Both the position numbers and the translations under genes were made by a program. 64,000 bases of DNA, from the NCBI GenBank assembly GCA_937141405.1, contig CAKZQQ010000008.1, forward strand, positions 1 through 64,000. Direction: 5' to 3'. Positions within the stretch are counted from its first letter, which is position 1. Each line of letters starts with the position of its first letter. The notes under the pieces are model-generated. The model had not been told where the DNA came from, made no database searches, and saw only the letters and a list, made by a program, of their open reading frames with translations. This DNA comes from an uncultured Campylobacterota bacterium. GTDB lineage: Bacteria > Campylobacterota > Campylobacteria > Campylobacterales > Sulfurovaceae. This document shows positions 10,199-50,354 of this stretch, in pieces.

Positions 10199-10662
10199 TC
10201 TTTATTCTCTGTATCAAATTTTCATTTTCAGCCGGTTATGATTTTGATGAGGTTCGCTTTATAAAAGCAATTGATGATAAAATATATAAAAGTGGGCATA
10301 TAGACATAGATGACTTCGTCGTAACGGTCACTTATAAAACGCCCTCTTATAAGAAAATTCTCAAAAAAGAAAATAATGTAACTATTGAGGGTTCTAGCGG
10401 GAATGTATATGGTTTGAAAGGAAAGGCTCTTTGGTACACAGATATGTATATTGATATCATGAGTAGGCTAGGAGAATATAAATCATTAAAGACAAATAAA
10501 GACTTTTATGTAGACAAAGAAGGTGAAGAGCTCCGAGTAACATTTTTGGAAGATGTCGGTGATGTTATCAAGAGTGCACTCGTTTTTGTAAAAAATCAAA
10601 AAGTAGTAAGCTTTAAGCTTTATATGCATAATGGCGATACCATAGAAATTATAAAAAAATGA
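10183..10662 (+). CDS. exported LolA-like carrier protein
   Basis: 159 residues with a signal peptide of about 17 residues (MRIIVIFILCIKFSFSA). The mature part is rich in short alternating strands with charged turns, as in LolA-type lipoprotein carriers, though I see no single diagnostic residue. Aryl polyene clusters usually carry a LolA-like gene just before the MMPL exporter, which is exactly the arrangement here (4-base overlap with the next gene). The likely role is periplasmic transfer of the lipidated polyene to the outer membrane. Confidence 0.6.
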   Translation: MRIIVIFILCIKFSFSAGYDFDEVRFIKAIDDKIYKSGHIDIDDFVVTVTYKTPSYKKILKKENNVTIEGSSGNVYGLKGKALWYTDMYIDIMSRLGEYKSLKTNKDFYVDKEGEELRVTFLEDVGDVIKSALVFVKNQKVVSFKLYMHNGDTIEIIKK

Positions 10663-12737
10663 GATATAGCAATCTACTTATTTTTATTGGTTTAGCTATA
10701 GTCTATTCTCTTTTTTTCTCTCATATCAGATATAGCACAAACTTTTTAGAGATATTTTTTACTAAAAAAAGTGTTAAAGTCTTAAATATTGCTAAGAAAA
10801 TAGGGAGTAATGAAGAGATATTGATAGCCAAAAAAGATTTTACACAAGAGAGCAAAAATGAACTTCGCAAGATAGCCTCTGAACTACAAAATATACCGGA
10901 GATACAAGAAGTATATTTTCAAAACACTCTATCCCCAAAGCTCAAAGAATACATGGTAAAAAATTATTATCTTCTAGCAGATTTCAAAAATGAGCGCCTT
11001 AGCTCAAAACAAATAGAGCAAAAATTTCAAGCATTGTATCAGCGACTTCACGACTCTGTCTTATATGAACCCGTTAATCCCTATGATCCCCTTGCCCTTT
11101 TTACATTAAAGGAGGAAGGGGAACGAGAGGATGTTTTTAAACTCAATGGTTTTGGCTATCTCATAAAGGCAACAACAAATATTGACACCTCAAGTGCCGA
11201 TTTATCACAGCGGCTCTATGATAAAGTAAATCATATATTAAGCGGGCATAAAGATGTCATTGCGATAGCTCCGTTCTTTTATCTTGTTGAGAATTCCAAC
11301 CATATAAAAAGTGATGCGCAACGTATTATGCTCATCGCAACTATTTTGCTACTTATTTTATACTTTTTTATCCTCAAGAATAGTAAGCTTTTTATAAACT
11401 CTATCCTCGCTATAGGCAGCTCAATCCTTGGTGCCGTTATGATAAGTTCGCTTTTTTATGAAAGCATCAATCTCCTCACTCTTGCTTTTGGGGTGAGCAT
11501 TACAACCATCTCTATAGATTATATGTTTCACTACTATTTTCACAATAATTTTACGCCTAAAACAAGTCATTTTCAAAAAAATGTTTTTTATGGTTTCTTA
11601 ACAACATTTGGTGTCTTTATAATTTTTAGCTTTATTGATATAGAATTTTTTTCCCAACTTGCTCTTTTTGGGGCAGTCTCCATAAGTATCGCCTTTCTAA
11701 TATTTAGTTTCATCTTTGTTCATCTAGGCATAAAAGAGCCAAATATCATAAAAGAAGAAAGAGAGAGAAAAGGGTTGCATCCTCTTTATGTGGTGATATT
11801 CTCTATCGTCTTGCTTGCTATAAGTTTTCAAAACTTAGAATTTGATTATGAACTAAAAAATTTAGACTATCAAAATAAAAAACTTATCGACACATCAAAA
11901 AGATTCAATGAGGGGTTTAATCAAAAGGGATACCAAAAGCTTCTTATAAGCGGCAAAACAAAAGAGCAACTTCTAGAAAATTATGAAGCAATATCAGACG
12001 AACACCCTTCGATGCTAGGAATAGGGAGATTTGTCTTAAGTCAAAAAAAATGTATGCAAAAACTTTTAACACTACGGCAATATAATTTTAGAACATTAAG
12101 AGATAATATAAAAAATATCTCTAAAAAGGTGGGCTTTTCAGAGAGTTTTGAAAAAGCTTACAATGGAACAGAAAAGCTAAACTGCGATCCTCCTATTTTT
12201 GATGATTTCAAATTTAAAATCATCAAAGAAGAGAACCTCTACTATACTTTAGCACTAATAGACCAAAAAGAGAAGATAAAAGAGAAGTCATATCTTCAGG
12301 TCATCGATATTGGAAAGATGTTAAAACAGGACATGAAAGAAATACGAGAAAGATTAATTACTTTTGTCTATATCTCTATGGCTTTTATACTATTGCTATT
12401 GCTATTTATTGCAAAAAAAGACTTTTATTACCCTTTGATGTACTTTCTCTTCCCGGTAAGTATAGTTTTGTTTACCATATCACTATTTTTCAAAATCAAC
12501 ATAATGCATATTTTCGCACTTATCATATTGTTAGCAATTAGTGTTGATTATGGATTTTATCTCTATGAAAAGAAGAATACTTCTGCAGTAAAAATAGCTA
12601 TAAAATATGCTCTATTGAGTACTTTTTGCGGATTTGGTTCATTGGTGCTCAGCAACACTGTAGCACTTTTTTCCATAGGCATGGTGATAACATTAGGCAT
12701 AAGCGCTATTTTTCTTTTACTTTATGTTAGTTTATGA
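10659..12737 (+). CDS. MMPL/RND family exporter
   Basis: 692 residues. One N-terminal membrane segment (about 5-22), a large periplasmic region (25-220), a block of five or six segments (about 222-360), a second periplasmic region (about 390-560), and a second block of segments to the C-terminus. This duplicated layout is that of MMPL 'predicted exporters' (COG4258), a standard part of aryl polyene clusters. Gly/Asp-containing segments such as ITTISIDYMFHYYF and AISVDYGFYLY would carry the proton relay. It likely extracts the polyene lipid from the inner membrane and hands it to the LolA-like protein. Confidence 0.85.
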   Translation: MRYSNLLIFIGLAIVYSLFFSHIRYSTNFLEIFFTKKSVKVLNIAKKIGSNEEILIAKKDFTQESKNELRKIASELQNIPEIQEVYFQNTLSPKLKEYMVKNYYLLADFKNERLSSKQIEQKFQALYQRLHDSVLYEPVNPYDPLALFTLKEEGEREDVFKLNGFGYLIKATTNIDTSSADLSQRLYDKVNHILSGHKDVIAIAPFFYLVENSNHIKSDAQRIMLIATILLLILYFFILKNSKLFINSILAIGSSILGAVMISSLFYESINLLTLAFGVSITTISIDYMFHYYFHNNFTPKTSHFQKNVFYGFLTTFGVFIIFSFIDIEFFSQLALFGAVSISIAFLIFSFIFVHLGIKEPNIIKEERERKGLHPLYVVIFSIVLLAISFQNLEFDYELKNLDYQNKKLIDTSKRFNEGFNQKGYQKLLISGKTKEQLLENYEAISDEHPSMLGIGRFVLSQKKCMQKLLTLRQYNFRTLRDNIKNISKKVGFSESFEKAYNGTEKLNCDPPIFDDFKFKIIKEENLYYTLALIDQKEKIKEKSYLQVIDIGKMLKQDMKEIRERLITFVYISMAFILLLLLFIAKKDFYYPLMYFLFPVSIVLFTISLFFKINIMHIFALIILLAISVDYGFYLYEKKNTSAVKIAIKYALLSTFCGFGSLVLSNTVALFSIGMVITLGISAIFLLLYVSL

Positions 12738-12773
12738 TAAAATTGCAAAAAAATTAATATCTTTGGGGAAAAG

Positions 12774-13928
12774 ATGCGCATATATGATATGGATAAAAAG
12801 TGCTATGTTGCTATTCAAAAGATAGATGAAGCTTGTAAAAAAATAGAGCAATTAAGCGATGCTCTCTATTGCTACAAAAATGAAATTTTTACCACAGTCT
12901 ACGACAAATCTCAGCCTGCACTTAAGTCCCATGTTGCATCTTTCAAAAAAGAGTATCTGGAACAAACTAATATGCAGTTTCTCTATTTTACCTCAGGAAC
13001 AACCGGATTGCCAACCGGCGTCTATAAAACAAAACAAAACTCTAGACAACAAGCATTGTCTATGATAAGTACTCTCCCGAAAAATATCAAATTTACAAGA
13101 GTTATTACAACCGTTCCTTTTGTCCATATTTACGGAGTTGATATAGGCGGAGTTGTTCCATTTGAGATGGACATAGACGTTTGGGCAAAAGAAAACTTTT
13201 TACCCGAAGAGTTAGCTTTAGAAGCAGCAATACCAAATACACTCATAATTACAACCCCGCTTTTTATCAAAGCACTCAATAGAATCAAAAAGCCTGTGCA
13301 TTTCGAAAAATCTTTTTTTATAACTTCTACTGCACCTCTTTCTCAAAAAGATGCCAAAGAGTTTAAAGAACACTATAGAAGTTCGGTAATGCAGCTTTTT
13401 GCTTCCACTGAAGCAGGAATTATGGGCTATAAGATTGATGACGAAGAGACATTTAAAACTTATAATTGTGTTCAAATTGGAGAAAACGACAGCAAGCTTA
13501 ACATATCTTCCCCTTTTGTTACACAAAAAGTTTTAAACAAGACCATTAAAGATGTTGTTTTACCTTTTCAAACAGAAGATATCGTTGAGATACTTGGAGA
13601 ACATGAATTTAAATTGCTTGGCAGAAGTTCAAATTTAGCAAAAATAGCCGGTAAAAGAATCTCTACTATCCAAATAGAAAATATTATTGAAAGTTTAGGG
13701 GAGGTAAAATGTGCACTTGTAAAAGTAAGAAAAGACGAAAAAGCATTGAGAGATGAAATTTTAGATATTTATATAGAATCAGATATTGAAATTAAACATA
13801 AAGATATAAGAGATATGTTTAAAGAAGTTTTTGGTCCTATAAACATTATTTTTAAAGTATATAATGGAATGGAGATAATAAAAAGTTCAGTCGGAAAAAA
13901 GATTGGATTTAAAGAAAAAACTAATTAG
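12774..13928 (+). CDS. AMP-ligase (acyl/aryl-ACP synthetase) of the cluster
   Basis: 384 residues, an adenylate-forming enzyme with the P-loop YFTSGTTGLPTG at 71-82 and the C-terminal hinge LLGRSSNLAKIAGKRIS. It is shorter than typical acyl-CoA synthetases (about 500) because the region before the P-loop is reduced. In aryl polyene pathways this enzyme activates the aromatic starter acid and loads it on the carrier protein. Here it would act on the product of the ammonia lyase, with the carrier-protein gene immediately after it. A 36-base gap with the sequence GGGGAAAAG provides its ribosome binding site. Confidence 0.8.
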   Translation: MRIYDMDKKCYVAIQKIDEACKKIEQLSDALYCYKNEIFTTVYDKSQPALKSHVASFKKEYLEQTNMQFLYFTSGTTGLPTGVYKTKQNSRQQALSMISTLPKNIKFTRVITTVPFVHIYGVDIGGVVPFEMDIDVWAKENFLPEELALEAAIPNTLIITTPLFIKALNRIKKPVHFEKSFFITSTAPLSQKDAKEFKEHYRSSVMQLFASTEAGIMGYKIDDEETFKTYNCVQIGENDSKLNISSPFVTQKVLNKTIKDVVLPFQTEDIVEILGEHEFKLLGRSSNLAKIAGKRISTIQIENIIESLGEVKCALVKVRKDEKALRDEILDIYIESDIEIKHKDIRDMFKEVFGPINIIFKVYNGMEIIKSSVGKKIGFKEKTN

Positions 13929-13929
13929 A

Positions 13930-14193
13930 ATGGAGAATATTTTGATAACTACTACAGATTTGAAATTAAAGCTTATTAGCGGATTAGGGCTTGAAGATAT
14001 AAGTGTTGACGATATAGGTGATGAGATGCCTCTTTTTGGAGAAGAGGGGCTTGGTTTGGATAGCGTTGATGCTATTGAGATAACACTTCTTGTAGAAAAA
14101 GAGTTTGGAGTTAAGATAAAAGATCTTGAAGAGAACAGTACAGTTTTTTCTACTCCAGAGACACTAACTCAATATATCAACAAAAACAGATAA
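13930..14193 (+). CDS. acyl carrier protein (second of two)
   Basis: 87 residues from ATG 13930. An in-frame ATG at 13903 lies inside the AMP-ligase gene, and a TTG at 13942 has a GGAG 6 bases upstream, so the exact start is open. The attachment motif GLGLDSVDAIE puts the phosphopantetheine on the Ser at about residue 45. Position directly after the AMP-ligase suggests it accepts the activated aryl starter, whereas the carrier at 2959 sits next to the extending ketosynthases; that division of labour is inference. Confidence 0.88.
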   Translation: MENILITTTDLKLKLISGLGLEDISVDDIGDEMPLFGEEGLGLDSVDAIEITLLVEKEFGVKIKDLEENSTVFSTPETLTQYINKNR

Positions 14194-14196
14194 AAG

Positions 14197-14559
14197 ATGG
14201 GTGAATTTCATATTCCTCACCAACCTCCCATTAGATTTGCTAGAGATATCATTAGCGCAAACACTCAAGAATGTCTTGTTAACGCTTCTTTCGATGAGAT
14301 TCCAACTCTAGGAATGCTATTGGAAGCAGCTGCACAAGGCAGTTTAGCTATGGCGGAAAATAACGACACCAATAAAATGGGTTTTTTAGTAAGTTTAAAA
14401 AATATAAAACTCTTAAAAGAGCCTGCAACAAAAAACTATATTGTGAAAGTGAAACTTGTAAGCAATCTTGATATTTTTAGAAGTAAAAAATTTGAAATTT
14501 TTGAGCATGAAAAATGCTTAGTGGCAACCGGAGATTTTTCTGTAATGTTACACAACTAA
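14197..14559 (+). CDS. 3-hydroxyacyl-ACP dehydratase, hot-dog fold (ApeP-like)
   Basis: 120 residues. The N-terminal HIPHQPPIRFARDII matches the 'PHRPPM' pattern of ApeP/FabZ-like dehydratases, and LLEAAAQGSLAMAE is the hot-dog helix. It should dehydrate the beta-hydroxyacyl-ACP left by the FabG-like reductase, building the conjugated double bonds. It starts 3 bases after the second carrier gene and is the last gene of the cluster; the next gene is an unrelated outer-membrane protein with its own start signals. Confidence 0.75.
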   Translation: MGEFHIPHQPPIRFARDIISANTQECLVNASFDEIPTLGMLLEAAAQGSLAMAENNDTNKMGFLVSLKNIKLLKEPATKNYIVKVKLVSNLDIFRSKKFEIFEHEKCLVATGDFSVMLHN

Positions 14560-32600: not shown

Positions 32601-33233
32601 TTAAATAAAATTTATCTTGGCCTTTATCTCATCATCTATTTTCAGATCATCTGTAGTCAATTTCGTACCATAAGAGAAGTTAGCTTTTTTTGTTCCCATC
32701 ATTTGCCACGATCCAACACCATTACTGTTTGCACTGCTTACGCTATAATGAGAACCAACGATACCGAGTGCCTGCATCAACTCATCTGTAAATTCAATAG
32801 TAGCTTCATATCCTACCGTTTGTATATGCCCATTGGTTTCAAAATCCTCTTTTTGGCATTGTCCATCTTTTGAAACATACATGGCGATATTTTCAGGAAT
32901 CTGCTCTAGGTTTTCTGCGCCCAATGTAATCGTACAACTATCATTTATGCAACTATATCCGGATGATAAACCATCGGGTGCAACTACGGATTTGAAGAAC
33001 ATATCATCTTCACTTCCTGCCGGCTTACATAGATTAATCCCTTCATATTGAAGACCTTTTTTCTCTTTCAGCGGAACCGTAATGCTCACATGTCCATCTT
33101 GTATTTCTATCTTTTGATTTATAGACTGCTCAGTTTGCCCAAAAAATGATTCATCCGCCATTGCCGTACCATATTGAAATCCTCCAACGACACCTACGGC
33201 TATCGGTATAACTATTATTTTTAAAAGTCTCAT
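32601..33233 (-). CDS. exported protein of unknown function
   Basis: 210 residues with an N-terminal hydrophobic signal or anchor (LLKIIVIPIAVGVVGGF, cleavage likely near MADE). The mature part has two close cysteine pairs (GYSCINDSCTI and DGQCQKEDF), many Ser/Thr/Gly, and reads like a beta-rich periplasmic or surface domain. No relative recognised. It lies between the two ribA direct repeats together with the next gene, on the opposite strand, an unusual placement for orphan genes. Confidence 0.65.
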   Translation of the reverse strand: MRLLKIIVIPIAVGVVGGFQYGTAMADESFFGQTEQSINQKIEIQDGHVSITVPLKEKKGLQYEGINLCKPAGSEDDMFFKSVVAPDGLSSGYSCINDSCTITLGAENLEQIPENIAMYVSKDGQCQKEDFETNGHIQTVGYEATIEFTDELMQALGIVGSHYSVSSANSNGVGSWQMMGTKKANFSYGTKLTTDDLKIDDEIKAKINFI

Positions 33234-33364
33234 CTCTTTTCCCTATTGGGTGTTTATGTGTTTAGAGTATTTTATCTAAAAAAATATTATACAATCAATA
33301 AAAAATATTTTGCTAGACATCAAAGTTTTCTTGGCTACAATGATAAATAAAATAAAGGTTACCA

Positions 33365-33790
33365 ATGTATCGTTTTCTTTTTAACATGACTGCTTCTGTC
33401 GTAGTTTTTTTTAGTTTTTTAGCTTGCTCCAACTCGGAAAACAATTCTTATGTGGATGCTGAGGAAACAAGGTCTGGGCAAAGTCTTTTTGACTTGTCGT
33501 GCTCTAGTTCTACATCATGCACCCAAACCGCTAACACATATCTAGTTCAAGTTGATGGTTTATATATTGAACCGAATCAAGAATTTATCGATAAATGCCT
33601 CACAGATAGAGCCATCAATGCTCCAATAAGTATCTATTGCAAACAGATGATTTTACCAGGAGATAGTGAAAGCTTTAACGCCTCTGCCGAAGTGATTGAA
33701 CATCTAAAAAAGAATGGACTTAATCCAACGGATGATGATGTAAGTAGAAGAATCAAAATAGCAGAAGATAAAATTTATAACAATCAATAG
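33365..33790 (+). CDS. predicted lipoprotein, unknown function
   Basis: 141 residues. The signal peptide ends at FSFLACSN, a fair lipobox with Cys21. Mature part: SLFDLSCSSSTSCTQTAN (a close Cys pair that may form a disulfide), then helices to the end. Divergently transcribed from 32601-33233 with a 131-base shared promoter region. Both lie within the segment bounded by ribA repeats, so they may have arrived together. Function unknown. Confidence 0.65.
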   Translation: MYRFLFNMTASVVVFFSFLACSNSENNSYVDAEETRSGQSLFDLSCSSSTSCTQTANTYLVQVDGLYIEPNQEFIDKCLTDRAINAPISIYCKQMILPGDSESFNASAEVIEHLKKNGLNPTDDDVSRRIKIAEDKIYNNQ

Positions 33791-33815
33791 TCATAGTTAT
33801 GCCTTATAAGCCTAG

Positions 33816-33899
33816 TTATTTCTCCTTTATCGGGGAAAAGATAGGTGTATCCAAAAAATCTTTGGATCTAAAGTTACGAACTATTGTCTACGCTTCTTC
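33816..33899 (-). pseudogene. 3'-end remnant of a TupA-like substrate-binding protein gene
   Basis: The minus strand encodes TIVRNFRSKDFLDTPIFSP then IKEK and a stop. This lines up without gaps to the C-terminus of the intact protein encoded at 39865-40677 (TMIRSFRLKGFSDTPVFFP). An internal TAG stands where the intact gene has CAG. Nothing of the rest of the gene remains; upstream it is fused to a ribA fragment at a short shared GAAGAAG-type sequence. This is a dead fragment left by recombination. Confidence 0.85.
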
Positions 33900-33983
33900 T
33901 CGCCCTTTGAATGACTGGATGATAAAATCACCGTGTCTTGTAGGGAGTTTTGCTTTTTCTGATACTTTAATCTCATTTTTCAT
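33900..33983 (-). pseudogene. ribA 5' fragment
   Basis: The minus strand starts MKNEIKVSEKAKLPTRHGDF, identical to the start of ribA, continues IIQSFKGREEA and stops in the fused remnant. It has the ribA promoter with it, so a short useless transcript running antisense to the end of the lipoprotein gene at 33365-33790 is possible. Confidence 0.85.
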
Positions 33984-34040
33984 AATCGGGATTATACCTT
34001 AAATGTCATAAATCTAGAAGTTTTTTAGGAGAATTTTATC
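33905..34040. repeat. ribA 5'-end/promoter direct repeat, copy 2
   Basis: Nearly identical to 32412-32548, same orientation, about 1.49 kb apart. The high identity, including non-coding bases, points to a recent event. The two copies bracket the two orphan exported-protein genes. Confidence 0.9.
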
Positions 34041-34054
34041 TTTTATTTATTTTA

Positions 34055-35359
34055 TCAATAAATGCTCAATATCTTCAACTCCTCAAACTCTTTTTTCGCC
34101 TTAACTGCAAAAGCAAGCATATATAAAAAACTTGTTGTAATATGTGCGCCAATGATACCATATATCCCAAAATAGTAAGTCAAAATAACACCCGATACAA
34201 ACAAAATGGACAGTAAAATAAAGAGTGTTTTATTGATATAGTTTTCATATCCGCCATAAAGCAAGAATCTCATAGAGAGATTGCCTATTTCTAGCAATAT
34301 TTGAGAAAAGGCTAAAGCTATCAGCCCATAGTAAATAACTACATATCCTCCGTTTTCTCCGAAATGCGCAAGTATCGCTTTACCAAAGAAGATGAAAATC
34401 AAAAATAACAGAGCAAAAAGGATAAATACACTTTTATTTGCTTTATAGATCAAGCTTTGCAAAGCAGGAAAATTTACCTTATCTTTGATAAATTTACTAA
34501 TGTTGGGTGATAAAAATATGCCTGATGATTGAGAAATGAGACTAAATAGCCCAATCAAAATCACCACGAGCGAATAATGCCCTATGATATCTTCATCTTC
34601 ATGCACTATATCTAAAATGATTTTATCGATATATAAAAAAAGTAAAAATATCAAATTTGAGAGCATATACTTTATGGAGCTTTTCTTCCACTCTCTGTGC
34701 TCGTCAAACTGAGATAATTCTTTTGAAAAAAAGAGACTAAACGGCAAATCAATTCCGCTTTTTTGGCTATACAAGATGGCTGTAAAAACAGTCAATATAA
34801 AAAATACTGCCATATATACTACGACCAAAGCAAAATCATTCTCTTTGATAGATGCAAGACCAAATAGGAAGAAAAATGTCACGATCAGTAAAAGATATCT
34901 TAATACATTATCTATAAATGCCGAAATAAAAGTATAGTTATGGCTACGAAGATAGACGATAATCAAAGCATATATTGCCGCGATAGGTGTTGCTATGAGC
35001 ATCAAAAAAGAAGTATGAATAGCCTCTATGTTTCTAAATATCAAAACAAACAAAGAAGCAAAAATCAGAAAAACAATAAAAAGTAAAAGAATTTTTTTTA
35101 TAAAGTAGAAATTCCACCTTATAAAATCCATCGAACTATTCTCTTTCTCCAATAGAGGGATATATCTCATGGCGCTTATTTCTGTCCCTAAAAGTAAAAA
35201 AGTTGATACGATCATCAAAACATTGAGCCCGATACAAAAATCCCCATAAGCTGCGGGTGTTAGATTATGCGTTAAATAACGATGCAATAAAAGATTCAAT
35301 AGATATCCTACCGTTGAGACAAGTATGATGTAAAAGGCGGAATTTTTAATTATTTTCAT
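34055..35359 (-). CDS. Wzx/MATE-like flippase, last gene of the orphan biosynthetic operon
   Basis: 434 residues with 12 or more hydrophobic segments from the very N-terminus (IIKNSAFYIILVSTVGYLLNLL). The pattern, with polar residues in the first helix (YGDFCIGLNVLM, MRYIPLL), fits the oligosaccharide flippase group of the MOP superfamily. It overlaps the ATP-grasp gene by 4 bases. In this operon it is the only obvious transporter and would carry the product, or a lipid-linked form of it, across the inner membrane. A polysaccharide role is possible, but no glycosyltransferases are nearby. Confidence 0.75.
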   Translation of the reverse strand: MKIIKNSAFYIILVSTVGYLLNLLLHRYLTHNLTPAAYGDFCIGLNVLMIVSTFLLLGTEISAMRYIPLLEKENSSMDFIRWNFYFIKKILLLFIVFLIFASLFVLIFRNIEAIHTSFLMLIATPIAAIYALIIVYLRSHNYTFISAFIDNVLRYLLLIVTFFFLFGLASIKENDFALVVVYMAVFFILTVFTAILYSQKSGIDLPFSLFFSKELSQFDEHREWKKSSIKYMLSNLIFLLFLYIDKIILDIVHEDEDIIGHYSLVVILIGLFSLISQSSGIFLSPNISKFIKDKVNFPALQSLIYKANKSVFILFALLFLIFIFFGKAILAHFGENGGYVVIYYGLIALAFSQILLEIGNLSMRFLLYGGYENYINKTLFILLSILFVSGVILTYYFGIYGIIGAHITTSFLYMLAFAVKAKKEFEELKILSIY

Positions 35360-36561
35360 CTGATTGCAACCGGCATCATCGGACTAAGTCCGAAAGGATT
35401 ACTAAAGCCATATGTTCTAAAATTTAAAAATTCACCATTAAAAAATTCCACTCGAAGCTGCCCCTTGTATGGTTCAATTTGCTTTCCATTTTCGTCTTCA
35501 TAATATATACTTTCCGCTTCAAAATACTCTTGTGCGATATAAAAATCCGCCTCTTCTTTTATAATTTTTTCAATGATTTCGACAGAAGGCTTTATATAAA
35601 CTCCTTCGGTATGATAATTGTCTATGGGCTTGAGAACAAAATTTTTCGAATTTCCGAAAAAAGAGTACAACTCTTGTGCATTTGTAAAATTATTGACCAT
35701 AGCAGATTTTAATGTTATACTTTTTAGGGCAGCCTCATCATCTTTACTTAAACCATAGTCTAGATTATCTAAATTGGCAAGAGTATTTAAAAATCTTTTA
35801 TCACCAATCGTCCAGCACCAAGGATTTGGGAAAAAGTATTCCGGTATCTTTTCAAAAAGTGTTGTGTAATTTAAAAATTCATCTTTGTTATGTTCCCAAT
35901 TTCTTGGAATCACTATATTGAACACTCCATCATACTCTTCATTATCCCACATTGGTCTGTTGTTATCTGAAATGCCTGCATCTTTTGCATATACAACTTT
36001 GGCATTCAACCCATTTTTATTTAAAAAATTCTCTATATATCTATAGTGATCAAGATAGTGCTCACTTCGACCTAGATGATTAACACATAATGCTATTTTA
36101 TCACCATCAAATCTCTCTTTTAAAAAATCTGCCAATCTTCTCTCAAAGCCATCAGTAAAAATTTCAAGTTCAAAATTAAAACTTTTTGCAAAAAGTTTTA
36201 GGAAAAGTTCTATCAATCCAAAATGCCCCGGCATAAAGAAATTTAATTCTATCAATCGTATCTCGTCGCCATCTATATGAAAATCAGCACTTCCAAAAAA
36301 ATCAGATTTTTTAACTTCTATTTTAGGCAAAAACCAGCCTCTTTGATATACACTTTCTTGATACTTTTTAGAGCTTAGAAGATGCATGATTGAAGGCAAA
36401 ATAGCCTCTTTTATTTTTGTGGCATTTGTTTTTTTCAAAAAATATGGACCCGTAGAAAGCGCATAAAGCTTTCCTACCTCTTTTTTAAAATCATTTTGGT
36501 ATTGTCTATACCTCTGCGGCGTATATTTTTCATGGTAATATCTTTTATACTCTTGTATCAC
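35356..36561 (-). CDS. ATP-grasp-type ligase
   Basis: 401 residues from GTG 36561, with AAGGA 5 bases upstream. Segments EIRLIELNFFMPGHFG (compare 'E-N-P-G' loop), FFPNPWCWTIGDKRFLNTL ('NP...DK' loop) and NFVLKPIDNYHTEGVYI (ATP-binding 'LKP...G.GV') match circularly permuted ATP-grasp or glutathionylspermidine-synthase-like enzymes. The C-terminal GQLRVEFFNGEFLNFRTYG resembles the catalytic strands. Such enzymes join a carboxylate and an amine with ATP. It overlaps the AMP-ligase gene by 17 bases. Substrates unknown. Confidence 0.65.
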   Translation of the reverse strand: MIQEYKRYYHEKYTPQRYRQYQNDFKKEVGKLYALSTGPYFLKKTNATKIKEAILPSIMHLLSSKKYQESVYQRGWFLPKIEVKKSDFFGSADFHIDGDEIRLIELNFFMPGHFGLIELFLKLFAKSFNFELEIFTDGFERRLADFLKERFDGDKIALCVNHLGRSEHYLDHYRYIENFLNKNGLNAKVVYAKDAGISDNNRPMWDNEEYDGVFNIVIPRNWEHNKDEFLNYTTLFEKIPEYFFPNPWCWTIGDKRFLNTLANLDNLDYGLSKDDEAALKSITLKSAMVNNFTNAQELYSFFGNSKNFVLKPIDNYHTEGVYIKPSVEIIEKIIKEEADFYIAQEYFEAESIYYEDENGKQIEPYKGQLRVEFFNGEFLNFRTYGFSNPFGLSPMMPVAIR

Positions 36562-38050
36562 ATCTATCCTTTGTGGAGATAAAATCTTTTTGCGTCAATA
36601 ATATTTTCTTAAGTTCGCCTCTTTTTATTTTCCCCAAGTCAGTTCTAGGAATTAATTTTACAAAATATATTCTTGAGGGAATTTTGTAGCTATAAAGATT
36701 AGTTTTATCTATTTTAAAATGCTTTTTTAGCATAGTAACTATTTCTTCAACGAGTTTGACTTGATTTGTCAAATCATCAATAACAATTGCCATACATAAC
36801 TCATCTGCCCCAATTTCTGTTTCAACAGAAGAGACTCCCACATCATAAACTAGTTTATGCGTAGCGATAATGGTTTCTACCTCGCGAGGGAAAACTTTAA
36901 GTCCATCCAAATTAATGGTCTCTTTTGCTCTGCCAAGCACGGTAATATATCCTTGCTTATCGACGAATCCAATGTCTCCCGTTTGAAACCAGCCATCTTG
37001 CAATGATTTATCTTCTTCATACAAATACCCCGCCATGACATTCTCACCTCGTATAAATATCTCACTCTGATTATCTATCCTTATCTCAATTCCTTTTGCA
37101 GGTCTTCCTGTTGTGTGTTCAAAGCCTATATTTTCCCTACATACATTAACAATGCTTCTACTTGCTTCTGTTGAACCATAATATGTGCAAAACCGAAGAT
37201 CGGGCAAGAGATCAAGAAGTTCTTTTATAGTCTCTTTTTTCATCGGCATAACATTAGCCAAGGCATACTTTAGGGTTGTTGCTGAATTTTTAAATTTATC
37301 TTTATGGGTTTTAAGTATCTTACCTATAATACCGGGAGTCAAAAGAACACCTGTTATATTTTCTTGCACAAGAGTGTCTAAAAAAACAGTAATGCTCTGC
37401 TCATCTAAATTTGCGTAGAGCCCGGGATACAGTCGTGCATAATTTCCTAAAAACATGCATGCATGAAAATGCCCAAGTCCTCCTGTTGAACCAAGCGGAA
37501 GCAGTATAATCTCCCTTTCTCTCTCTTCTTGCATCTGTGCTAGCTCAATCAATGTCTTAGTAACAAAAATAACATTTTTTTGAGTTGTAACTACCGCTTT
37601 TGGCGAAGATGTCGTCCCACTCGTAAACATGATATAGGCTATTTCATTTACATCTTCTTTGTATGTAGGCTCAAGTGTATCATCAGATACAAACCCAAAT
37701 ACCTTTGCCTTGAGATGATTGCCTGCAAATTTATTGCTAATTACTGCTTTTGCTTTAGTGTGCTTGATAGCAAACTTTATATATTCATCTTCACGCTCCG
37801 GATATGTATGTACACTAATCGCACCGATATTGAGTAAAGCGATATAGGTGATGAGATGTTCAATTTTTTTATCTAGATGAATTATGACAAAATCTCCATT
37901 TTGTATCCCATGGTTTAGTAAACAAGTTGAAAATCTTGCTGTTTCATCATAAAAATCTTGAAAACTCCATGCTCTATCTTCGTCTTTTAGAAAGATTTTA
38001 TCAGGACTGCTTTGAACTCTTTTTTTGAGATAAGACACAATAGTGTTCAT
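36545..38050 (-). CDS. adenylate-forming ligase (acyl/aryl-CoA synthetase family)
   Basis: 501 residues. Core motifs: IMFTSGTTSSPKAV (about 140-152), YYGSTEAS, GDIGFVDKQGYI and GRAKETINLDG, with the catalytic lysine motif IPRTDLGKIKRGELKK at the C-terminus. No carrier domain is fused and no carrier gene is in the operon, so the product is either a CoA thioester or a free adenylate passed to an amine. It follows the racemase with a 4-base overlap. Substrate is not predictable by eye. Confidence 0.85.
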   Translation of the reverse strand: MNTIVSYLKKRVQSSPDKIFLKDEDRAWSFQDFYDETARFSTCLLNHGIQNGDFVIIHLDKKIEHLITYIALLNIGAISVHTYPEREDEYIKFAIKHTKAKAVISNKFAGNHLKAKVFGFVSDDTLEPTYKEDVNEIAYIMFTSGTTSSPKAVVTTQKNVIFVTKTLIELAQMQEEREREIILLPLGSTGGLGHFHACMFLGNYARLYPGLYANLDEQSITVFLDTLVQENITGVLLTPGIIGKILKTHKDKFKNSATTLKYALANVMPMKKETIKELLDLLPDLRFCTYYGSTEASRSIVNVCRENIGFEHTTGRPAKGIEIRIDNQSEIFIRGENVMAGYLYEEDKSLQDGWFQTGDIGFVDKQGYITVLGRAKETINLDGLKVFPREVETIIATHKLVYDVGVSSVETEIGADELCMAIVIDDLTNQVKLVEEIVTMLKKHFKIDKTNLYSYKIPSRIYFVKLIPRTDLGKIKRGELKKILLTQKDFISTKDRCDTRV

Positions 38051-38943
38051 CCTGTCTTCTCCTTGGGCTGTTCCAATTGTTGCAAAACCAAATGAAGCGG
38101 ATTGACAAATTCAAATGCATCAAGAAGGTTTATTGTCTCTTTGTCTGCATATGTCTTAATGCACTCTATTGCAACCGGAAGCTCAGTGCAACCGAGCAAT
38201 ACTTTTTTTATTTCATAATCTTTAAGTGCTTTAAACAAAGGTGTACTATTTTTTAGAATTTTATCTTTATCAAAAGTTTTAACACCATCAATTATTGATG
38301 ATAAATATTTTTTTTGTGTTGTTGGAGCAAAGATATCATCAAGAAAAAAGAGATTTTCTACTCCATTATAGAGCCTATTTTTGGCAGTAAAATCAGTCTG
38401 CAAAACGATACTTTTTTTATCAAAAAATATATCAGAATATTTTTTTACCCCATCAATAAAAGAATAAAAAATAAGTTTGTTTTGAAAATTACTACGAGAA
38501 ATAATATCTTGTATATATTTATGAGCACTATTGCATAAAACAATGAGTTCTATTTTCTTGTTTTCGGGACACAATTTAATAGCACTGTTAAGTGCAGATA
38601 GAAGATATTGAGGCACCTCGGTATCCATTCTTCGCTCAGGAATTCCGCAAGCTTGAAAGAGCGTGATAGAGGCACTATTGCCTATCATATTGATTACATC
38701 TTTTGCTCCATGAACTCCTGCTAATGGGCCCATACCCCCAAGAAGAAGAACATGCTTATCTTGTGTGTTATTTGAAACCATGGAAAAAGCACAACACTCA
38801 AAAACTTGATCTCGAACCTTCACTCCTTGGGATTGAAACTTTTTGGCACTACTCTTTAACAGCATTTCATACTCATCAAGATAACACATCATCTCATTAG
38901 TATCTGTAGCTTTTTTAAAGAATGTCGGCTTAAAATCAATCAT
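38047..38943 (-). CDS. aspartate/glutamate racemase family protein
   Basis: 298 residues. The two catalytic cysteines are visible: Cys137 in IVLCNSAHKY and Cys252 in VLLGCTELPVA; LLGGMGPLAGVHGA is the N-terminal family motif. Sequence is nearer to the AspR/YgeA group (LLGGMGP) than to MurI (FDSG), so it is probably not the murein glutamate racemase. A D-amino acid, most likely D-Asp or D-Glu, could be a building block for the two ligases in the operon. The N-terminus carries about 60 extra residues compared with AspR. Confidence 0.8.
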   Translation of the reverse strand: MIDFKPTFFKKATDTNEMMCYLDEYEMLLKSSAKKFQSQGVKVRDQVFECCAFSMVSNNTQDKHVLLLGGMGPLAGVHGAKDVINMIGNSASITLFQACGIPERRMDTEVPQYLLSALNSAIKLCPENKKIELIVLCNSAHKYIQDIISRSNFQNKLIFYSFIDGVKKYSDIFFDKKSIVLQTDFTAKNRLYNGVENLFFLDDIFAPTTQKKYLSSIIDGVKTFDKDKILKNSTPLFKALKDYEIKKVLLGCTELPVAIECIKTYADKETINLLDAFEFVNPLHLVLQQLEQPKEKTG

Positions 38944-38946
38944 CAG

Positions 38947-39768
38947 TTAGTCAAACTTTTTTGCTATTGTCTCTATTGCCTCACATACTCTATCTATATA
39001 TATTGAAATAACTTCACTCATAATCTCGGTTGATACTTTTTCTTTTGATGCTTTTTCATATTTTTCTATCGCATTAATTACTGCCATAAAGTGATGAATC
39101 TCTGTTTCATATTGGTTATGCACATCTATGTATCTTATAGCATCTTCCAGCTCTTCTCCTTTTATGCCATAAAAATTCTCCATGCTATATTTAAAAGTCA
39201 GAAAAGAGTAGGCGTACTCTGCATGATTATAGAATTCCGAGAACATATTGATGCAAAGTGCATATGGTATAGACTCAAGTAGCATACTTTTATACACCCA
39301 ACTAGCAAAATCATTTGCCTCTTTTGTATCATATTTAGCAAGTTTCCATTCATCACTTTTTACCATCGAGAAAGCAAATTCATCATACAGTTGTCCATGA
39401 GAGATAGCATCAAAACCCATGCCCAAATCCTCATGACTGGTTTTTGCATTATAAGCAGATGACTCTAAAAAAGCTAACTTTTGCTCTTTATCTTCGCTCG
39501 CCATTCCAAGCTGATTCAATCTGCAAGAAAGTCCATATATCGGTAACATTTTCAAATGTGTTGCTTTCCATCCATTAAGAAAAAGATTCATAGTTTCATC
39601 TGAGTATTTTTTACTGCACATTTTTTCAAATGCTCTCTCTAAAGATGAAAATTTATCAGCTTTGTTTTGTACTGATTGTTTAATAGTTTTCTTTATATCA
39701 CCCTCGGGTAACATATCCAAAACTTCCCCCATAGTTGCAATCATTGTTTTTTGTATGTTGAGTTCCAT
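38947..39768 (-). CDS. haem-oxygenase-like diiron oxidase (TenA/Haem_oxygenas_2 type), first gene of the operon
   Basis: 273 residues from ATG 39768, with AAAGGAGAAAAT before it; a longer frame adds 25 unlikely residues. All-helical with SHEDLGMGFDAISHGQLYDE (111-130), where Glu113 and His124 match the 'E..lG.G...SH..LY' metal-ligand pattern of haem-oxygenase-like oxidases; Glu178/His182 and His217/Glu221/His225 are further candidate ligands. Enzymes of this group perform N-oxygenation, C-C cleavage, decarboxylation or alkene formation on amino or fatty acids. Family placement is by motif only. Confidence 0.6.
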   Translation of the reverse strand: MELNIQKTMIATMGEVLDMLPEGDIKKTIKQSVQNKADKFSSLERAFEKMCSKKYSDETMNLFLNGWKATHLKMLPIYGLSCRLNQLGMASEDKEQKLAFLESSAYNAKTSHEDLGMGFDAISHGQLYDEFAFSMVKSDEWKLAKYDTKEANDFASWVYKSMLLESIPYALCINMFSEFYNHAEYAYSFLTFKYSMENFYGIKGEELEDAIRYIDVHNQYETEIHHFMAVINAIEKYEKASKEKVSTEIMSEVISIYIDRVCEAIETIAKKFD

Positions 39769-39813
39769 ATTTTCTCCTTTTTGTTCTATTAGTTTATTAC
39801 AATTATTTTGAAT

Positions 39814-39843
39814 ATTATATAAAGATAATTGTTTTATAATCAA
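39814..39843 (-). promoter_or_regulatory. promoter of the orphan biosynthetic operon
   Basis: On the minus strand TTGATT (39838-39843), an 18-base spacer, and TATAAT (39814-39819) form a good sigma-70 promoter about 46 bases before the ATG at 39768. It lies in the 96-base gap after the binding-protein gene, so the operon can be expressed on its own or by read-through from the TonB operon. No ModE-like box is seen here. Confidence 0.6.
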
Positions 39844-39864
39844 TTTATAAAATAAAATGACAAC

Positions 39865-40677
39865 TTATAGAGCTATTCTATTTACTTTTATCGGGAAAAA
39901 GACGGGTGTATCTGAGAAACCTTTGAGTCTAAAGCTACGAATCATTGTCTGTACTTCTGATGAAGTTAAAAATTGTAGTAAAAGTTGCGCATTATCATAA
40001 CGCTCTTTACTAATCCTCTTAGGTGTTCCAACAGCTGCAAGATAGGGTCTTTGAAGTGATTCATCCTCTATGATAAATCCCGTAACATTCGGATCATAAT
40101 GTTTTTGCATCAAAAAAGGGATCACACCAAACAGGGTATAGGCGTCATTGGCAACAACTTGATCTAAAAAACCGTTTGCCTTTTGCGTGAAAATAATCTT
40201 TGGCTGAAATGCATACCGCATGCTTATCGCATGAAATACCTCAAAAGTCCCGCCACTCGCATGGATTAAAAAATTACTTTTTGAATCAGCTATCTTTTGA
40301 AGTGCGCTTTGAAGAGTATCGCCTTGTTCCAATTTGGCTGGATTTGTTTTAGGCGCGATGAGCATCTGTGAGTTATGCATCCAAGGAGTCAAATCCTCTA
40401 TGATACCCTCAGCCGCTAGATTTGCTATGGTATCGCTCGAGTGCATCGTCACAAGATCAACATCATGACTTTTGCAATATGGGCCTATGATCCTTTTTGG
40501 TCCGGTGATAACAAGTTCTGTCTTTATCCCATATTTTTTCTCAAAAGCCGTAGATATCTGATCCCACAACCCGCTCATGGTGATCCCACCGATAACAGCA
40601 ACCCGTATAGGTTGCGTTTGAGCAAAGAGAGCGGTAGAAAACAGAAGGGCGATAAAGAGAAATATCTTTTTGATCAA
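39865..40677 (-). CDS. TupA-like periplasmic oxyanion (tungstate/molybdate) binding protein
   Basis: 270 residues with a signal peptide (MIKKIFLFIALLFSTALFA). VAVIGGITMSGLWDQISTAF and EKKYGIKTELVITGP, then DVDLVTMHSSDTIANLAAEG, follow the TupA/PBP-like pattern of tungstate-binding proteins (compare 'TTTS..DSGLLD...F.K..GI', 'GDVDVLLVH....E..F...G'). No ABC permease or ATPase is next to it. It overlaps the TonB receptor gene by 4 bases, an unusual partnership, and the pair has ModE-like boxes upstream. A phosphate/sulfate-type ligand is an alternative. Confidence 0.7.
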   Translation of the reverse strand: MIKKIFLFIALLFSTALFAQTQPIRVAVIGGITMSGLWDQISTAFEKKYGIKTELVITGPKRIIGPYCKSHDVDLVTMHSSDTIANLAAEGIIEDLTPWMHNSQMLIAPKTNPAKLEQGDTLQSALQKIADSKSNFLIHASGGTFEVFHAISMRYAFQPKIIFTQKANGFLDQVVANDAYTLFGVIPFLMQKHYDPNVTGFIIEDESLQRPYLAAVGTPKRISKERYDNAQLLLQFLTSSEVQTMIRSFRLKGFSDTPVFFPIKVNRIAL

Positions 40678-42665
40678 AACATATATTCCATCGATACAAA
40701 AAACTCTCTTCCTGGCATCGGGAAGGCTCTGTCATAACCGTAATTTTTATCAGTGATATTTTTCACTCCAATCTCTGCTGTGAGTGCTTCTGTCGGAGTA
40801 TAGATCAACTTAGTATCAAAAGTAGCAAATGTTTGTGCTTTTACATAAGTTCTATCCATCTTTTGCTCATACCCTCCTTCTCTAAATTTCATATTTCCAT
40901 ACAATGAAAGATGAGGATAAATCTCAGCTTGTGCATAGAAAAAGAGTTGGTGCTCCGGCACATCGGTCATTTTTGCTTCACTGTCACTTTTATCTTTAAG
41001 AGAGATGTAGGTGTAATTACCGCCTACTTCATAGATATCTTTTGTATAACTCACATCAAACTCAACACCTCTATGTTCAAAATCACCTATATTTTGATTT
41101 TGCGAGATATCATTTACAGAATCAATAATGACACTTTGAATCGCATCATCGATTCTTGTCACAAATCCTGCGATACCCAATTTAAGATTTTCAAAATTTT
41201 TACTATAGTTGAGCTCGTAATGAGTTGATTTCTCAGCTTTAAGATCAGGATTTGGCTCAGCTGAACCGAGTCTTCTGCTATATCTATCTTTCATTGAAGT
41301 AAGATATGTTTTTCGAGAAATACTTGCCCTTAGAGCGCTTGTAACATCAGGCTTATAGACAAGTGCAACCTGTGGATTGAAACTATCCGATGAGCCAAGA
41401 GGGATCGCCTCTGTTGCAGAAGACTCATCCCAAGCGTAATCGCCTTCTTTTCTATCATAACTTATACCTCCCAAAAGCTGCCACTTATCTGCGATCTCAT
41501 AGACATCTTCTATACCAAGCGAGAGTGTGGTGTCCTCGTATCGATCTACTAGCTCTTCACTCGAATCTGTCTTACTGATATCATACCCTCTATGCACATC
41601 TTTTTTATAATTAGCAGAAAGTGTGAGATCATTTTTGTCAAAATTCATCACATACTCTAAACGCGTGCCATAACTATAATCATCATATCTGCTTTTAAAG
41701 GTAAAGCCTTTAGTATTAAATGTACTGTAAGTATCATCGGCATATGAGTAGAGAGAATTTTTGATTTTGTCATAGTAAGCTAAGGCTTTAAAGGTGCTAT
41801 GCGCAAACCTCTTCTCCCCTGCTACATACATCGTCTCCTTATCCCAATAAGGCCAATCCCAATATTTCGTCTTGCTATACTCAGTATCTGTTGCAGGCGG
41901 CTGCTCTTTCTCGCCTTTTTGATTGATATACCCAAATGCTATCTCGCTTGTCTCATCGATAAAATACCCCACCTTGAGATTGATCTTTTGATCTTTTGTT
42001 TTTGAACGCAAGCGATCCCCCTCGGGTTGAGATGCAGTTGCCTCATAATCATCACTCAATCTAAAGTGATCTTGATTGGCATAGGTTGCCCCTAATTGGA
42101 TATAGTATTTATCTTGTTTTGTGCCGACATTGAGCGAGGTAACCTGTTTTGCAAACTCTCCACTGCTGTCAAAAACAAGTTCGCTTTTTACATTTCCCTC
42201 AAAAGCTTTTGTCGGTTTCTTGGAAATCACATTGATGACACCACCCATTGCATTGGCTCCATATGCAACCGATGAATACCCTTTTGATACATCTATCTGC
42301 TCGATATCTGTTGTGAGAAATCTAGCATAATCAAAATTACCGTCATAAGGCACATAGACAGGAATACCGTCTATAAAAAATCCTACTCTTTTGGCATCAA
42401 ATCCCCTGACATAGAGTGTAGACTCTGCTCTACCTCCCTGTTCTTGCTGTGTCACGCCACTCATAGTATCTAGTGCTTCACTGACTGTTAAAGCATTACT
42501 TTTTTGTATTGAGCTTGCCGTAATCGTCTCTTCAAATGCTCCATTACCCGATCTATTATCATCCAATGAATCGATAACATTGATCCTCCCAAGATCAAAT
42601 GCCTCCCCATGAACATTTTGTATCAATAACCCCGCAACCACTACCGATAGAACTATTTTTTTCAT
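40674..42665 (-). CDS. TonB-dependent outer-membrane receptor
   Basis: 663 residues from ATG 42665, chosen for the GAGGAG ribosome binding site 5 bases upstream and the signal peptide starting MKKIVLSVVVAGLLIQ. A plug domain (about 45-160) with LYVRGFDAKRVGFFIDGIPV and GANAMGGVINVISK is followed by a 22-strand barrel ending in Phe (FVSMEYMF). Substrate class cannot be read from the barrel. The two ModE-like boxes upstream and the TupA-like partner point to molybdate/tungstate, alone or complexed, rather than iron. Confidence 0.92.
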   Translation of the reverse strand: MKKIVLSVVVAGLLIQNVHGEAFDLGRINVIDSLDDNRSGNGAFEETITASSIQKSNALTVSEALDTMSGVTQQEQGGRAESTLYVRGFDAKRVGFFIDGIPVYVPYDGNFDYARFLTTDIEQIDVSKGYSSVAYGANAMGGVINVISKKPTKAFEGNVKSELVFDSSGEFAKQVTSLNVGTKQDKYYIQLGATYANQDHFRLSDDYEATASQPEGDRLRSKTKDQKINLKVGYFIDETSEIAFGYINQKGEKEQPPATDTEYSKTKYWDWPYWDKETMYVAGEKRFAHSTFKALAYYDKIKNSLYSYADDTYSTFNTKGFTFKSRYDDYSYGTRLEYVMNFDKNDLTLSANYKKDVHRGYDISKTDSSEELVDRYEDTTLSLGIEDVYEIADKWQLLGGISYDRKEGDYAWDESSATEAIPLGSSDSFNPQVALVYKPDVTSALRASISRKTYLTSMKDRYSRRLGSAEPNPDLKAEKSTHYELNYSKNFENLKLGIAGFVTRIDDAIQSVIIDSVNDISQNQNIGDFEHRGVEFDVSYTKDIYEVGGNYTYISLKDKSDSEAKMTDVPEHQLFFYAQAEIYPHLSLYGNMKFREGGYEQKMDRTYVKAQTFATFDTKLIYTPTEALTAEIGVKNITDKNYGYDRAFPMPGREFFVSMEYMF

Positions 42666-42684
42666 ATGAACTCCTCTATTAAAT

Positions 42685-42712
42685 TTCATTATATATATTT
42701 TTATATAACGAT
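42685..42712 (-). promoter_or_regulatory. ModE-like box 1
   Basis: TTCATTATATA, six bases, TATATAACGAT. The proteobacterial ModE consensus is ATCGNTATATA-N6-TATATNNCGAT: the right arm fits perfectly, the left arm differs at two positions, and the spacer is exactly six. It overlaps a TATAAT on the minus strand (42689-42694), so bound ModE would block the promoter of the TonB receptor. Confidence 0.65.
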
Positions 42713-42750
42713 ATGTAAAACAATCCCTAAAAGAATTATGCAAAAATCAT

Positions 42751-49442: not shown

Positions 49443-50354
49443 CTACTTATTTGATTTGCAATTTTTATTATAAATTTTTGAATATTTTTCTAAGTAATAT
49501 TCCCTATTAACTTGTAAAGCATATTGAATTAACCCACAAAGTCTCTTTATATTTCTAGAATCACCTCTTCCCTCTAATATACTTAAAATTTTATCTTTAT
49601 GTTTATTTAATATCCTAAACCCATCTTTTGTAAGCTTTACGCCAGTTATGTTTGATTTTTTACCTATCTTTCCTCTGTATATTTTTCCTTGATGTATTTT
49701 ATATCCATACTTTTTAAGAATATTATATATCTTTGTATAAAACTTATAAGAAATAATTTTCTTTGAAGAAAAAGTCATATCATCAACATATAATGAAAAT
49801 TTAATTCCATTTTTTTTAGAAATATCATCTATCTCATCAAACATCTTTTTATTAATCAAAAAAGCAAATCTCTGGCTAAAAAGACTTCCTGTTATTAATG
49901 CTCTTTTATTTTCAGATTTTTCTTGTGGTGCAGTAATAGAATTTACAATGAACTCCGCAACATTACTAGAAAGCTTATAATCCAATATGAGTCTCTTTTT
50001 GATTTTTGATTTTGTTGTTGAAGGATAAAAACCTCTTATATCAACCAATAATACAAAACTTGCGTCCTGATGATATTGAGCATTTGTAATATTTGATCGC
50101 CCCCTTACGCTCGATTTTAAATAATCGGGTATATCAACGTTAAATATCTTAAAATATCTTTTATGTATTTTATTTACAATTAATGAGCATTTAAACAGCT
50201 CTCTGCCATCTTTAAAAAATTTATGAAAAAACTTGGATGGGTTGTTTGAAAAATCATTTGATAAACTTTTTATATTATTAGAAGAAATTAAAAGATAATT
50301 TGATAATTTTTTTAATGATTTGCAATTAAAAAGAGTGCAATCGAAGTTGTTCAT
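49443..50354 (-). CDS. retron-type reverse transcriptase
   Basis: 303 residues, the size of retron RTs. Retron-specific region X is seen as NAQYH (91-95, family NAxxH) and region Y as ITG (236-238, family VTG). Catalytic motif A is LLVDIRGFYPS (Asp105) and motif C is YVDD (189-192). The C-terminal thumb NIKRLCGLIQYALQVN fits. It would copy the msd part of the RNA encoded just upstream into multicopy DNA; retrons are anti-phage systems. Start codon lies inside a small upstream gene (29-base overlap). Visibly AT-richer than aguA and aguB, suggesting transfer. Confidence 0.88.
   Translation of the reverse strand: MNNFDCTLFNCKSLKKLSNYLLISSNNIKSLSNDFSNNPSKFFHKFFKDGRELFKCSLIVNKIHKRYFKIFNVDIPDYLKSSVRGRSNITNAQYHQDASFVLLVDIRGFYPSTTKSKIKKRLILDYKLSSNVAEFIVNSITAPQEKSENKRALITGSLFSQRFAFLINKKMFDEIDDISKKNGIKFSLYVDDMTFSSKKIISYKFYTKIYNILKKYGYKIHQGKIYRGKIGKKSNITGVKLTKDGFRILNKHKDKILSILEGRGDSRNIKRLCGLIQYALQVNREYYLEKYSKIYNKNCKSNK

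What the first reader, a model, noticed from the sequence alone, without database searches (positions are those of the whole stretch)
34055..39768. Five-gene orphan biosynthetic operon: haem-oxygenase-like oxidase, Asp/Glu racemase, adenylating ligase, ATP-grasp ligase, flippase
Seen: five minus-strand genes with overlaps of 4, 17 and 4 bases and a 3-base gap, behind a good promoter (39814-39843). The set provides a D-amino acid (racemase with both Cys), two ways to activate a carboxylate (AMP and ATP-grasp), an oxidative tailoring enzyme and an exporter. There is no carrier protein, NRPS module or glycosyltransferase. Inference: it makes a small amide- or peptide-like metabolite, perhaps containing D-Asp/D-Glu and an N-oxygenated or cleaved group, that is exported. 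I cannot match it to a known cluster class.
Basis: partly seen in the sequence, partly recalled or inferred. Interest (0 to 1): 0.85.

Follow-up and report, generated by a model that had tools for sequence, protein, structure and literature searches.

The report
Mobile operon for unknown small metabolite
Five neighbouring genes in a Sulfurovaceae-type bacterium, acquired as a 6.6-kb block from elsewhere, look like a compact kit that makes and exports an unknown amino-acid-derived compound, built without the usual giant peptide-making enzymes.

Summary
The five-gene operon is real at the stated coordinates. The order oxidase-racemase-AMP ligase-ATP-grasp ligase recurs in four other Campylobacterota genomes. 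The fifth gene is swapped: a flippase in three genomes, a GT9 glycosyltransferase in two. It is horizontally acquired: a close relative has the empty site, lacking 6.6 kb between window 33290 and 39878. Four operon proteins are 87-96% identical to those of a congener whose core proteins are only 61-68% identical. Profile comparisons support the oxidase as a haem-oxygenase-like dimetal oxidase (HDO) with proposed ligands D114, H124, E184, H217, E221, H226; the last three have MboA's published spacing. The racemase keeps both cysteines and the acid-gripping Arg/Lys of aspartate racemase. The ATP-grasp ligase is permuted, with the motif order of glutathionylspermidine synthetase. The AMP ligase lacks the alpha-amino anchor. 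HDO plus ATP-grasp clusters are a known kind (mangotoxin; at least 25 types reported). This gene set looks like a new variant with an unknown product. A Nostoc plasmid pairs a related HDO and GT9 with NRPS modules instead. AlphaFold models were too poor to use; no fold or chemistry is demonstrated.

The parts
38947..39768 (-). HDO: haem-oxygenase-like dimetal oxidase, 273 aa
   Evidence: Pfam Haem_oxygenas_2 E 0.018; profile-profile match to canonical HDO/DUF3050 proteins over 188 columns, 0 of 150 column shuffles as good; conserved in 5 Campylobacterota genomes, Nostoc, Azospirillum
39397..39435 (-). HDO residues 112-124 (HEDLGMGFDAISH): proposed metal ligands D114 (or E113) and H124
   Evidence: [E/D]-x9-H as in canonical HDO L024; residues invariant in seven homologues
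39091..39120 (-). HDO residues 217-226: H217-x3-E221-x4-H226 motif
   Evidence: invariant H217 and H226, acidic 221; same spacing as MboA H172/D176/H181 (PMC13185094)
38047..38943 (-). RAC: Asp/Glu racemase-family protein, 298 aa, with ~60-aa N-terminal extension
   Evidence: CuyB cysteate racemase 46.7 bits; PDB aspartate racemases E 2e-10; C137, C252, R104, K222 invariant
36545..38050 (-). ANL: stand-alone AMP-forming ligase, 501 aa
   Evidence: PF00501 E 2e-48; pocket residues TGGLL-YRSK in GrsA numbering, no Asp235
35356..36561 (-). GRASP: permuted ATP-grasp ligase, GSP_synth-like motif order, 401 aa
   Evidence: D93, E105-x-N107, K255, K311-P, R382 conserved; collinear profile match to YgiC/YjfC/Gss, 0 of 150 shuffles as good
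34055..35359 (-). FLIP: MOP-superfamily flippase/exporter, 434 aa
   Evidence: PF01943 E 3e-9; 68% and 49% homologues in L010 and L007; replaced by GT9 in L008/L009
39814..39843 (-). candidate sigma-70 promoter of the operon
   Evidence: TTGATT-18-TATAAT, 10 of 12; not enriched over shuffles
33291..39877 (.). acquired block: empty in relative G004, where hyp32601 and SBP are adjacent
   Evidence: L046 1-278 matches window 32998-33290 and L046 291-1300 matches 39878-40886, 12 bp between
33817..33983 (-). recombination scar: remnant of the SBP 3' end (33817-33897) and of the ribA 5' end (~33901-33983)
   Evidence: BLAST match to SBP tail (79% over 72 bp) and translation EKAKLPTRHGDFII

Best explanation
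A horizontally acquired, NRPS-independent biosynthetic operon for a small modified amino-acid amide or peptide. Proposed steps: RAC supplies a D-configured acidic amino acid (Asp, Glu or cysteate type) with two catalytic cysteines and an Arg/Lys pair that holds the side-chain acid. ANL adenylates a second carboxylic acid that is not an ordinary L-alpha-amino acid. GRASP makes an amide through an acyl phosphate, with the permuted ATP-grasp layout of peptide-spermidine ligases. HDO uses O2 and two metals to desaturate, cleave or N-oxygenate the amino-acid part. FLIP exports the product; in relatives a GT9 probably glycosylates it. Shown: gene order, conservation, horizontal acquisition, key residues, and GT9 co-occurrence. 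Inferred: the folds of HDO and GRASP, every substrate, the order of steps, the product and its export.
For: Same four-gene core in 5 genomes of 3 families, about 1% of those sampled. Empty site in G004, and 87-96% identity of four operon proteins to G010 against 61-68% for RibA, RsmG, PabB, PyrB. HDO profile match and ligands. RAC catalytic and side-chain-binding residues. ANL motifs without Asp235. GRASP motif order. The subfamily GT9 occurs in 3 of 397 genomes, all operon carriers, and in the Nostoc HDO locus. Mangotoxin shows that an HDO plus ATP-grasp operon can make a modified peptide.
Against: The AlphaFold models were unusable (pLDDT 45.6 and 35.5), so folds rest on motifs and weak profile scores (hhalign probability 35% and 17%). 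No homologue of HDO or GRASP with known function was found. FLIP and GT9 are families best known from glycan pathways.
Confidence: 0.6

Rival explanations
1. A glycan-decoration module: the racemase and ligases build an amino-acid or amide substituent that is attached to a surface or lipid-linked sugar, flipped by FLIP (Wzx-like) or transferred by GT9.
For: FLIP belongs to PF01943 Polysacc_synt; the alternative fifth gene is GT9; the Nostoc locus carries three glycosyltransferase-like genes.
Against: In the window no sugar-nucleotide or other polysaccharide gene adjoins the operon, and none was recognised among the neighbours in the other four loci (their neighbours were read only from translations). 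GT9 is unlinked in G392 and absent from G000 and G010. A diiron oxidase has no obvious role. A related HDO in Azospirillum sits beside an MFS transporter.
Confidence: 0.15
2. A metallophore or metal/oxidative-stress metabolite (chalkophore- or thiol-like), perhaps taken up through the adjacent TonB receptor.
For: Distant GRASP relatives (about 22% identity) sit in copper- and mercury-resistance loci of several proteobacterial plasmids. HDOs take part in making metal-binding chalkophores (PMC13108848). A TonB receptor and a TupA-like binding protein lie upstream on the same strand.
Against: The TonB receptor and binding protein lie outside the acquired block and are also in G004, which lacks the operon at that site. 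They do not adjoin the operon in other carriers. The copper-associated GRASP branch is far from this one.
Confidence: 0.15
3. A short amino-acid adenylation/CoA pathway in catabolism rather than biosynthesis: the genes degrade an acidic D-amino-acid derivative.
For: ANL is closest to acyl-CoA ligases; RAC is closest to cysteate racemase CuyB of sulfonate metabolism.
Against: An ATP-grasp ligase and an exporter are hard to place in a catabolic route; the operon has no importer, lyase or transaminase.
Confidence: 0.07

Closest known systems
Mangotoxin cluster mboABCDEF (PMC13185094)
   Same: An HDO with stand-alone ATP-grasp ligases and no NRPS; MboA has the same third-helix spacing H-x3-D-x4-H as H217-x3-E221-x4-H226
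   Different: No racemase or AMP ligase described in mbo; two ATP-grasp ligases, an arginine deiminase and redox partner MboB; MboA's first motif is E86-x2-H89, here D114-x9-H124
E. coli glutathionylspermidine synthetase (Gss) and YgiC/YjfC peptide-spermidine ligases
   Same: Order and spacing of D...E-x-N, K, K-P, R motifs
   Different: Sequence identity near background; no amidase domain; substrates unknown
Archaeal aspartate racemase (PDB 1jfl, 5b19) and cysteate racemase CuyB
   Same: Both Cys (C137, C252) and equivalents of R48 and K164
   Different: About 60-residue N-terminal extension; far below the CuyB curated cut-off (46.7 against 190 bits)
Nostoc sp. UHCC 0926 plasmid pn1 NRPS locus (L012)
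   Same: HDO 34% and GT9 50% identical; an A-T protein starts with the beginning of a RAC-like domain
   Different: NRPS modules in place of ANL and GRASP; the catalytic part of the racemase is missing
D-cycloserine pathway (DcsC racemase, DcsG ATP-grasp)
   Same: Racemase, ATP-grasp and oxidation in one small non-NRPS pathway (from memory; DcsG appeared only as a weak PDB hit)
   Different: Different racemase family, no HDO, no AMP ligase (from memory)

Membership tests
HDO (haem-oxygenase-like dimetal oxidase) | three-His/three-carboxylate ligand set in order | tested here: met
   D114, H124, E184, H217, E221 (D in Azospirillum), H226 align with canonical ligands; third motif matches MboA spacing
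HDO (haem-oxygenase-like dimetal oxidase) | seven-helix haem-oxygenase fold | tested here: inconclusive
   Model all-helical but pLDDT 45.6; collinear profile match beats 150 shuffles; Pfam E 0.018, below the cut-off
HDO (haem-oxygenase-like dimetal oxidase) | dimetal cofactor, O2 activation | not testable with these tools
   needs purified enzyme
Asp/Glu racemase family | two catalytic Cys in CNxAH and GCTE | tested here: met
   C137 and C252 invariant, aligned with AspR C82/C194
Aspartate/cysteate-type racemase | side-chain-acid-binding Arg and Lys (AspR R48, K164; role from memory) | tested here: met
   R104 and K222 invariant and aligned
CuyB cysteate racemase (equivalog) | curated score cut-off | tested here: not met
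   46.7 against 190 bits
ANL superfamily | AMP-binding and C-terminal domains with catalytic Lys | tested here: met
   PF00501 and PF13193 over cut-off; K474 invariant
NRPS amino-acid adenylation domain | Asp235 alpha-amino anchor | tested here: not met
   Thr at position 235 in all five
ATP-grasp, GSP_synth layout | D...E-x-N before the K-P lysine (permuted order) | tested here: met
   D93, E105-x-N107, K255, K311-P, R382 match Gss D318, E330-x-N332, K498, K533, R598 in order
ATP-grasp, GSP_synth layout | score over a curated family cut-off | tested here: not met
   only sub-threshold Pfam hits
HDO plus ATP-grasp cluster (mangotoxin kind) | HDO and stand-alone ATP-grasp ligase in one operon | tested here: met
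   five genomes, given the HDO and ATP-grasp assignments above
HDO plus ATP-grasp cluster (mangotoxin kind) | is one of the ~25 types already listed | not testable with these tools
   supplement Figure S2C not readable here

The most novel reading that the evidence does not exclude
A new family of natural products shared by Campylobacterota and cyanobacteria, in which one oxidase/glycosyltransferase core is coupled either to NRPS modules or to a carrier-free pair (an AMP ligase and a permuted, spermidine-ligase-like ATP-grasp enzyme). This would be an interchange of assembly chemistry around the same HDO, carried by a mobile operon.
Probability: 0.3. Interest if true: 0.68.

Novelty: new variant of a known kind. 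Interest (0 to 1): 0.5.

Why it matters
Few HDO reactions are known (about a dozen, PMC13108848), and I know of no characterised HDO pathway in Campylobacterota. The operon is short, free of carrier proteins and perhaps complete enough to rebuild in E. coli, so an unknown oxidative amino-acid chemistry becomes directly testable. It would also put a permuted, Gss-like ATP-grasp ligase into natural-product assembly, for which a literature search here found no precedent.

Tried and rejected
AlphaFold2 of HDO and GRASP: only two-row alignments were allowed, confidence too low, so no Foldseek search was made. PDB sequence searches with HDO and GRASP: no credible relative. Viral contigs: none. The single genome-contig scan found only the near-identical congener. 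hhalign of HDO against single canonical HDOs was no better than shuffles; it worked only with a six-sequence profile. hhalign of GRASP against Gss alone failed; it worked with Gss, YgiC and YjfC together. Because those two comparisons were retried with better profiles, their significance is somewhat overstated. Low GC as proof of transfer: rejected as weak, since another stretch of the window is lower. TonB receptor and binding protein as part of the system: rejected, because G004 has them without the operon. Literature searches for this gene set found nothing.

Full report
OBSERVATION. The five minus-strand genes, their overlaps (4, 17, 4 bases) and the 3-base gap are exactly as described. 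The oxidase most likely starts at the ATG at 39768: a GGAG site precedes it, and the homologues start at the same place. The promoter at 39843-39814 exists, but such sites are as common in shuffled sequence.

WHERE IT IS FOUND. The window is from a 1.75-Mb Campylobacterota genome. The closest named relative is a Sulfurovaceae MAG, JAQTLV010000001.1. The core HDO-RAC-ANL-GRASP occurs in the same order in G010 (same genus), G392 and two genomes of a third family, G304 and G223. Identities to the window range from 96% down to 65% (HDO), 87 to 37% (RAC), 88 to 51% (ANL) and 94 to 61% (GRASP). It is rare: 4 of 397 phylum-wide genomes, and 2 of 175 in the window's family.

THE FIFTH GENE IS INTERCHANGEABLE. 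It is a MOP-type flippase in three genomes and a GT9-family glycosyltransferase in the other two. That GT9 subfamily occurs in only 3 of 397 Campylobacterota genomes, and all three carry the operon. In G392 it is unlinked but 80% identical. By chance alone, 3 of 3 falling among 4 carriers of 397 has a probability of about 4e-7. Two of the three genomes share a genus, so the independent evidence is weaker (about 1e-3 by genus; my arithmetic).

MOBILITY. Congener G004 (TonB protein 95%, DUF2339 protein 93% identical) has an empty site. On one unbroken contig the gene at 32601 and the binding protein at 39865 are adjacent, and window 33291-39877 is missing with 12 bp in its place. The 3' end of the binding-protein gene is 68-84% identical to G004, while most of the following sequence is 90-99% identical. 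This suggests that a recombination tract ends inside that gene. At 33817-33983 lie remnants of the binding-protein 3' end and of the ribA 5' end, a scar of an earlier rearrangement. HDO, GRASP, ANL and RAC are 87-96% identical to G010, although RibA, RsmG, PabB and PyrB are only 61-68% identical. FLIP, at 68%, does not share this excess. The operon also sits at a different place in G010.

HDO. Pfam gives only E 0.018. A profile of seven homologues matches a profile of canonical HDO/DUF3050 proteins over 188 columns in one collinear alignment. The canonical profile was built from proteins fetched here (L024, L025, L042-L045), and 0 of 150 column shuffles score as well. The alignment pairs D114, H124, E184, H217, E221 and H226 with the canonical three-His/three-carboxylate ligands. 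H217-x3-E221-x4-H226 has the spacing of MboA H172/D176/H181 (PMC13185094). The fold itself is not shown.

RACEMASE. C137 and C252 align with C82 and C194 of P. horikoshii aspartate racemase. R104 and K222 align with R48 and K164, which hold the side-chain acid (alignment; the role of R48 and K164 is from memory). The family therefore suits Asp-, Glu- or cysteate-like substrates. It is not CuyB itself (46.7 against a 190-bit cut-off).

AMP LIGASE. The ANL motifs are present. The Nostoc A domain also lacks Asp235.

ATP-GRASP LIGASE. The invariant residues D93-F-H95, E105-x-N107, K255, K311-P and R382 are ordered as in Gss (R316, D318, E330, N332, K498, K533, R598; roles from memory, positions checked), not as in GshB. 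The match to YgiC/YjfC/Gss is collinear over 224 columns, with 0 of 150 shuffles as good. GshB matches only around the ATP-grasp lysine. Relatives at about 22% identity occur beside copper- or mercury-resistance genes on several proteobacterial plasmids, which leaves a metal-related rival open.

NOSTOC RELATIVE. Plasmid pn1 carries an HDO (34%), an A-T protein that begins with a RAC-like N-terminus ending in LLLLGGMGPLAG but lacks the catalytic part, an NRPS protein, and a GT9 50% identical to that of G304. The same oxidase/GT9 core thus appears with NRPS modules in place of the ANL/ATP-grasp pair. This is one locus only.

INTERPRETATION. The best reading is a mobile, carrier-free operon that joins an acidic D-amino acid to another acid or amine, oxidises the product with a dimetal enzyme and exports it. 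Gene order, residues and transfer are shown; folds, substrates, product and export are inferred.

NOVELTY. The kind is known: at least 25 HDO plus ATP-grasp cluster types are reported, and mangotoxin is largely solved. I could not read the list to see whether this set is in it. The combination with a racemase, an AMP ligase and a Gss-like ligase, and the NRPS counterpart in Nostoc, make it a new variant as far as I can test.

Noticed in passing
window 1160-14559: Looks like an aryl-polyene-type cluster: ketosynthases, a histidine/tyrosine ammonia-lyase-like protein (6730-8247), ketoreductase, acyltransferase, large exporter, AMP ligase, dehydratase; read from the translations only.
   Followed up: no
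window 49443-50354 (-): Reverse transcriptase with YVDD motif in a 30% GC stretch, possibly a retron or similar element.
   Followed up: no
window 39865-42743 (-): TonB-dependent receptor and TupA-like binding protein just upstream of the operon on the same strand; also present in G004, which lacks the operon there.
   Followed up: partly
window 33817-33983: Remnants of the binding-protein 3' end and of the ribA 5' end, joined, beside the operon: scar of a recombination.
   Followed up: partly
L014, L015, L019-L023: An uncharacterised permuted ATP-grasp family occurs repeatedly beside copper- or mercury-resistance genes on proteobacterial plasmids, annotated as hypothetical.
   Followed up: partly
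L012:12806-14965: Nostoc A-T protein with a truncated racemase domain at its N-terminus.
   Followed up: partly
L008:4634-5413 and L009:12286-13077: Divergent gene upstream of the operon in both GT9-type carriers; the L008 copy matches the FeeM-like N-acyl amino acid synthase family.
   Followed up: no
L042: Pantoea plasmid gene annotated as ectB transaminase with an HDO-like domain at its N-terminus.
   Followed up: no
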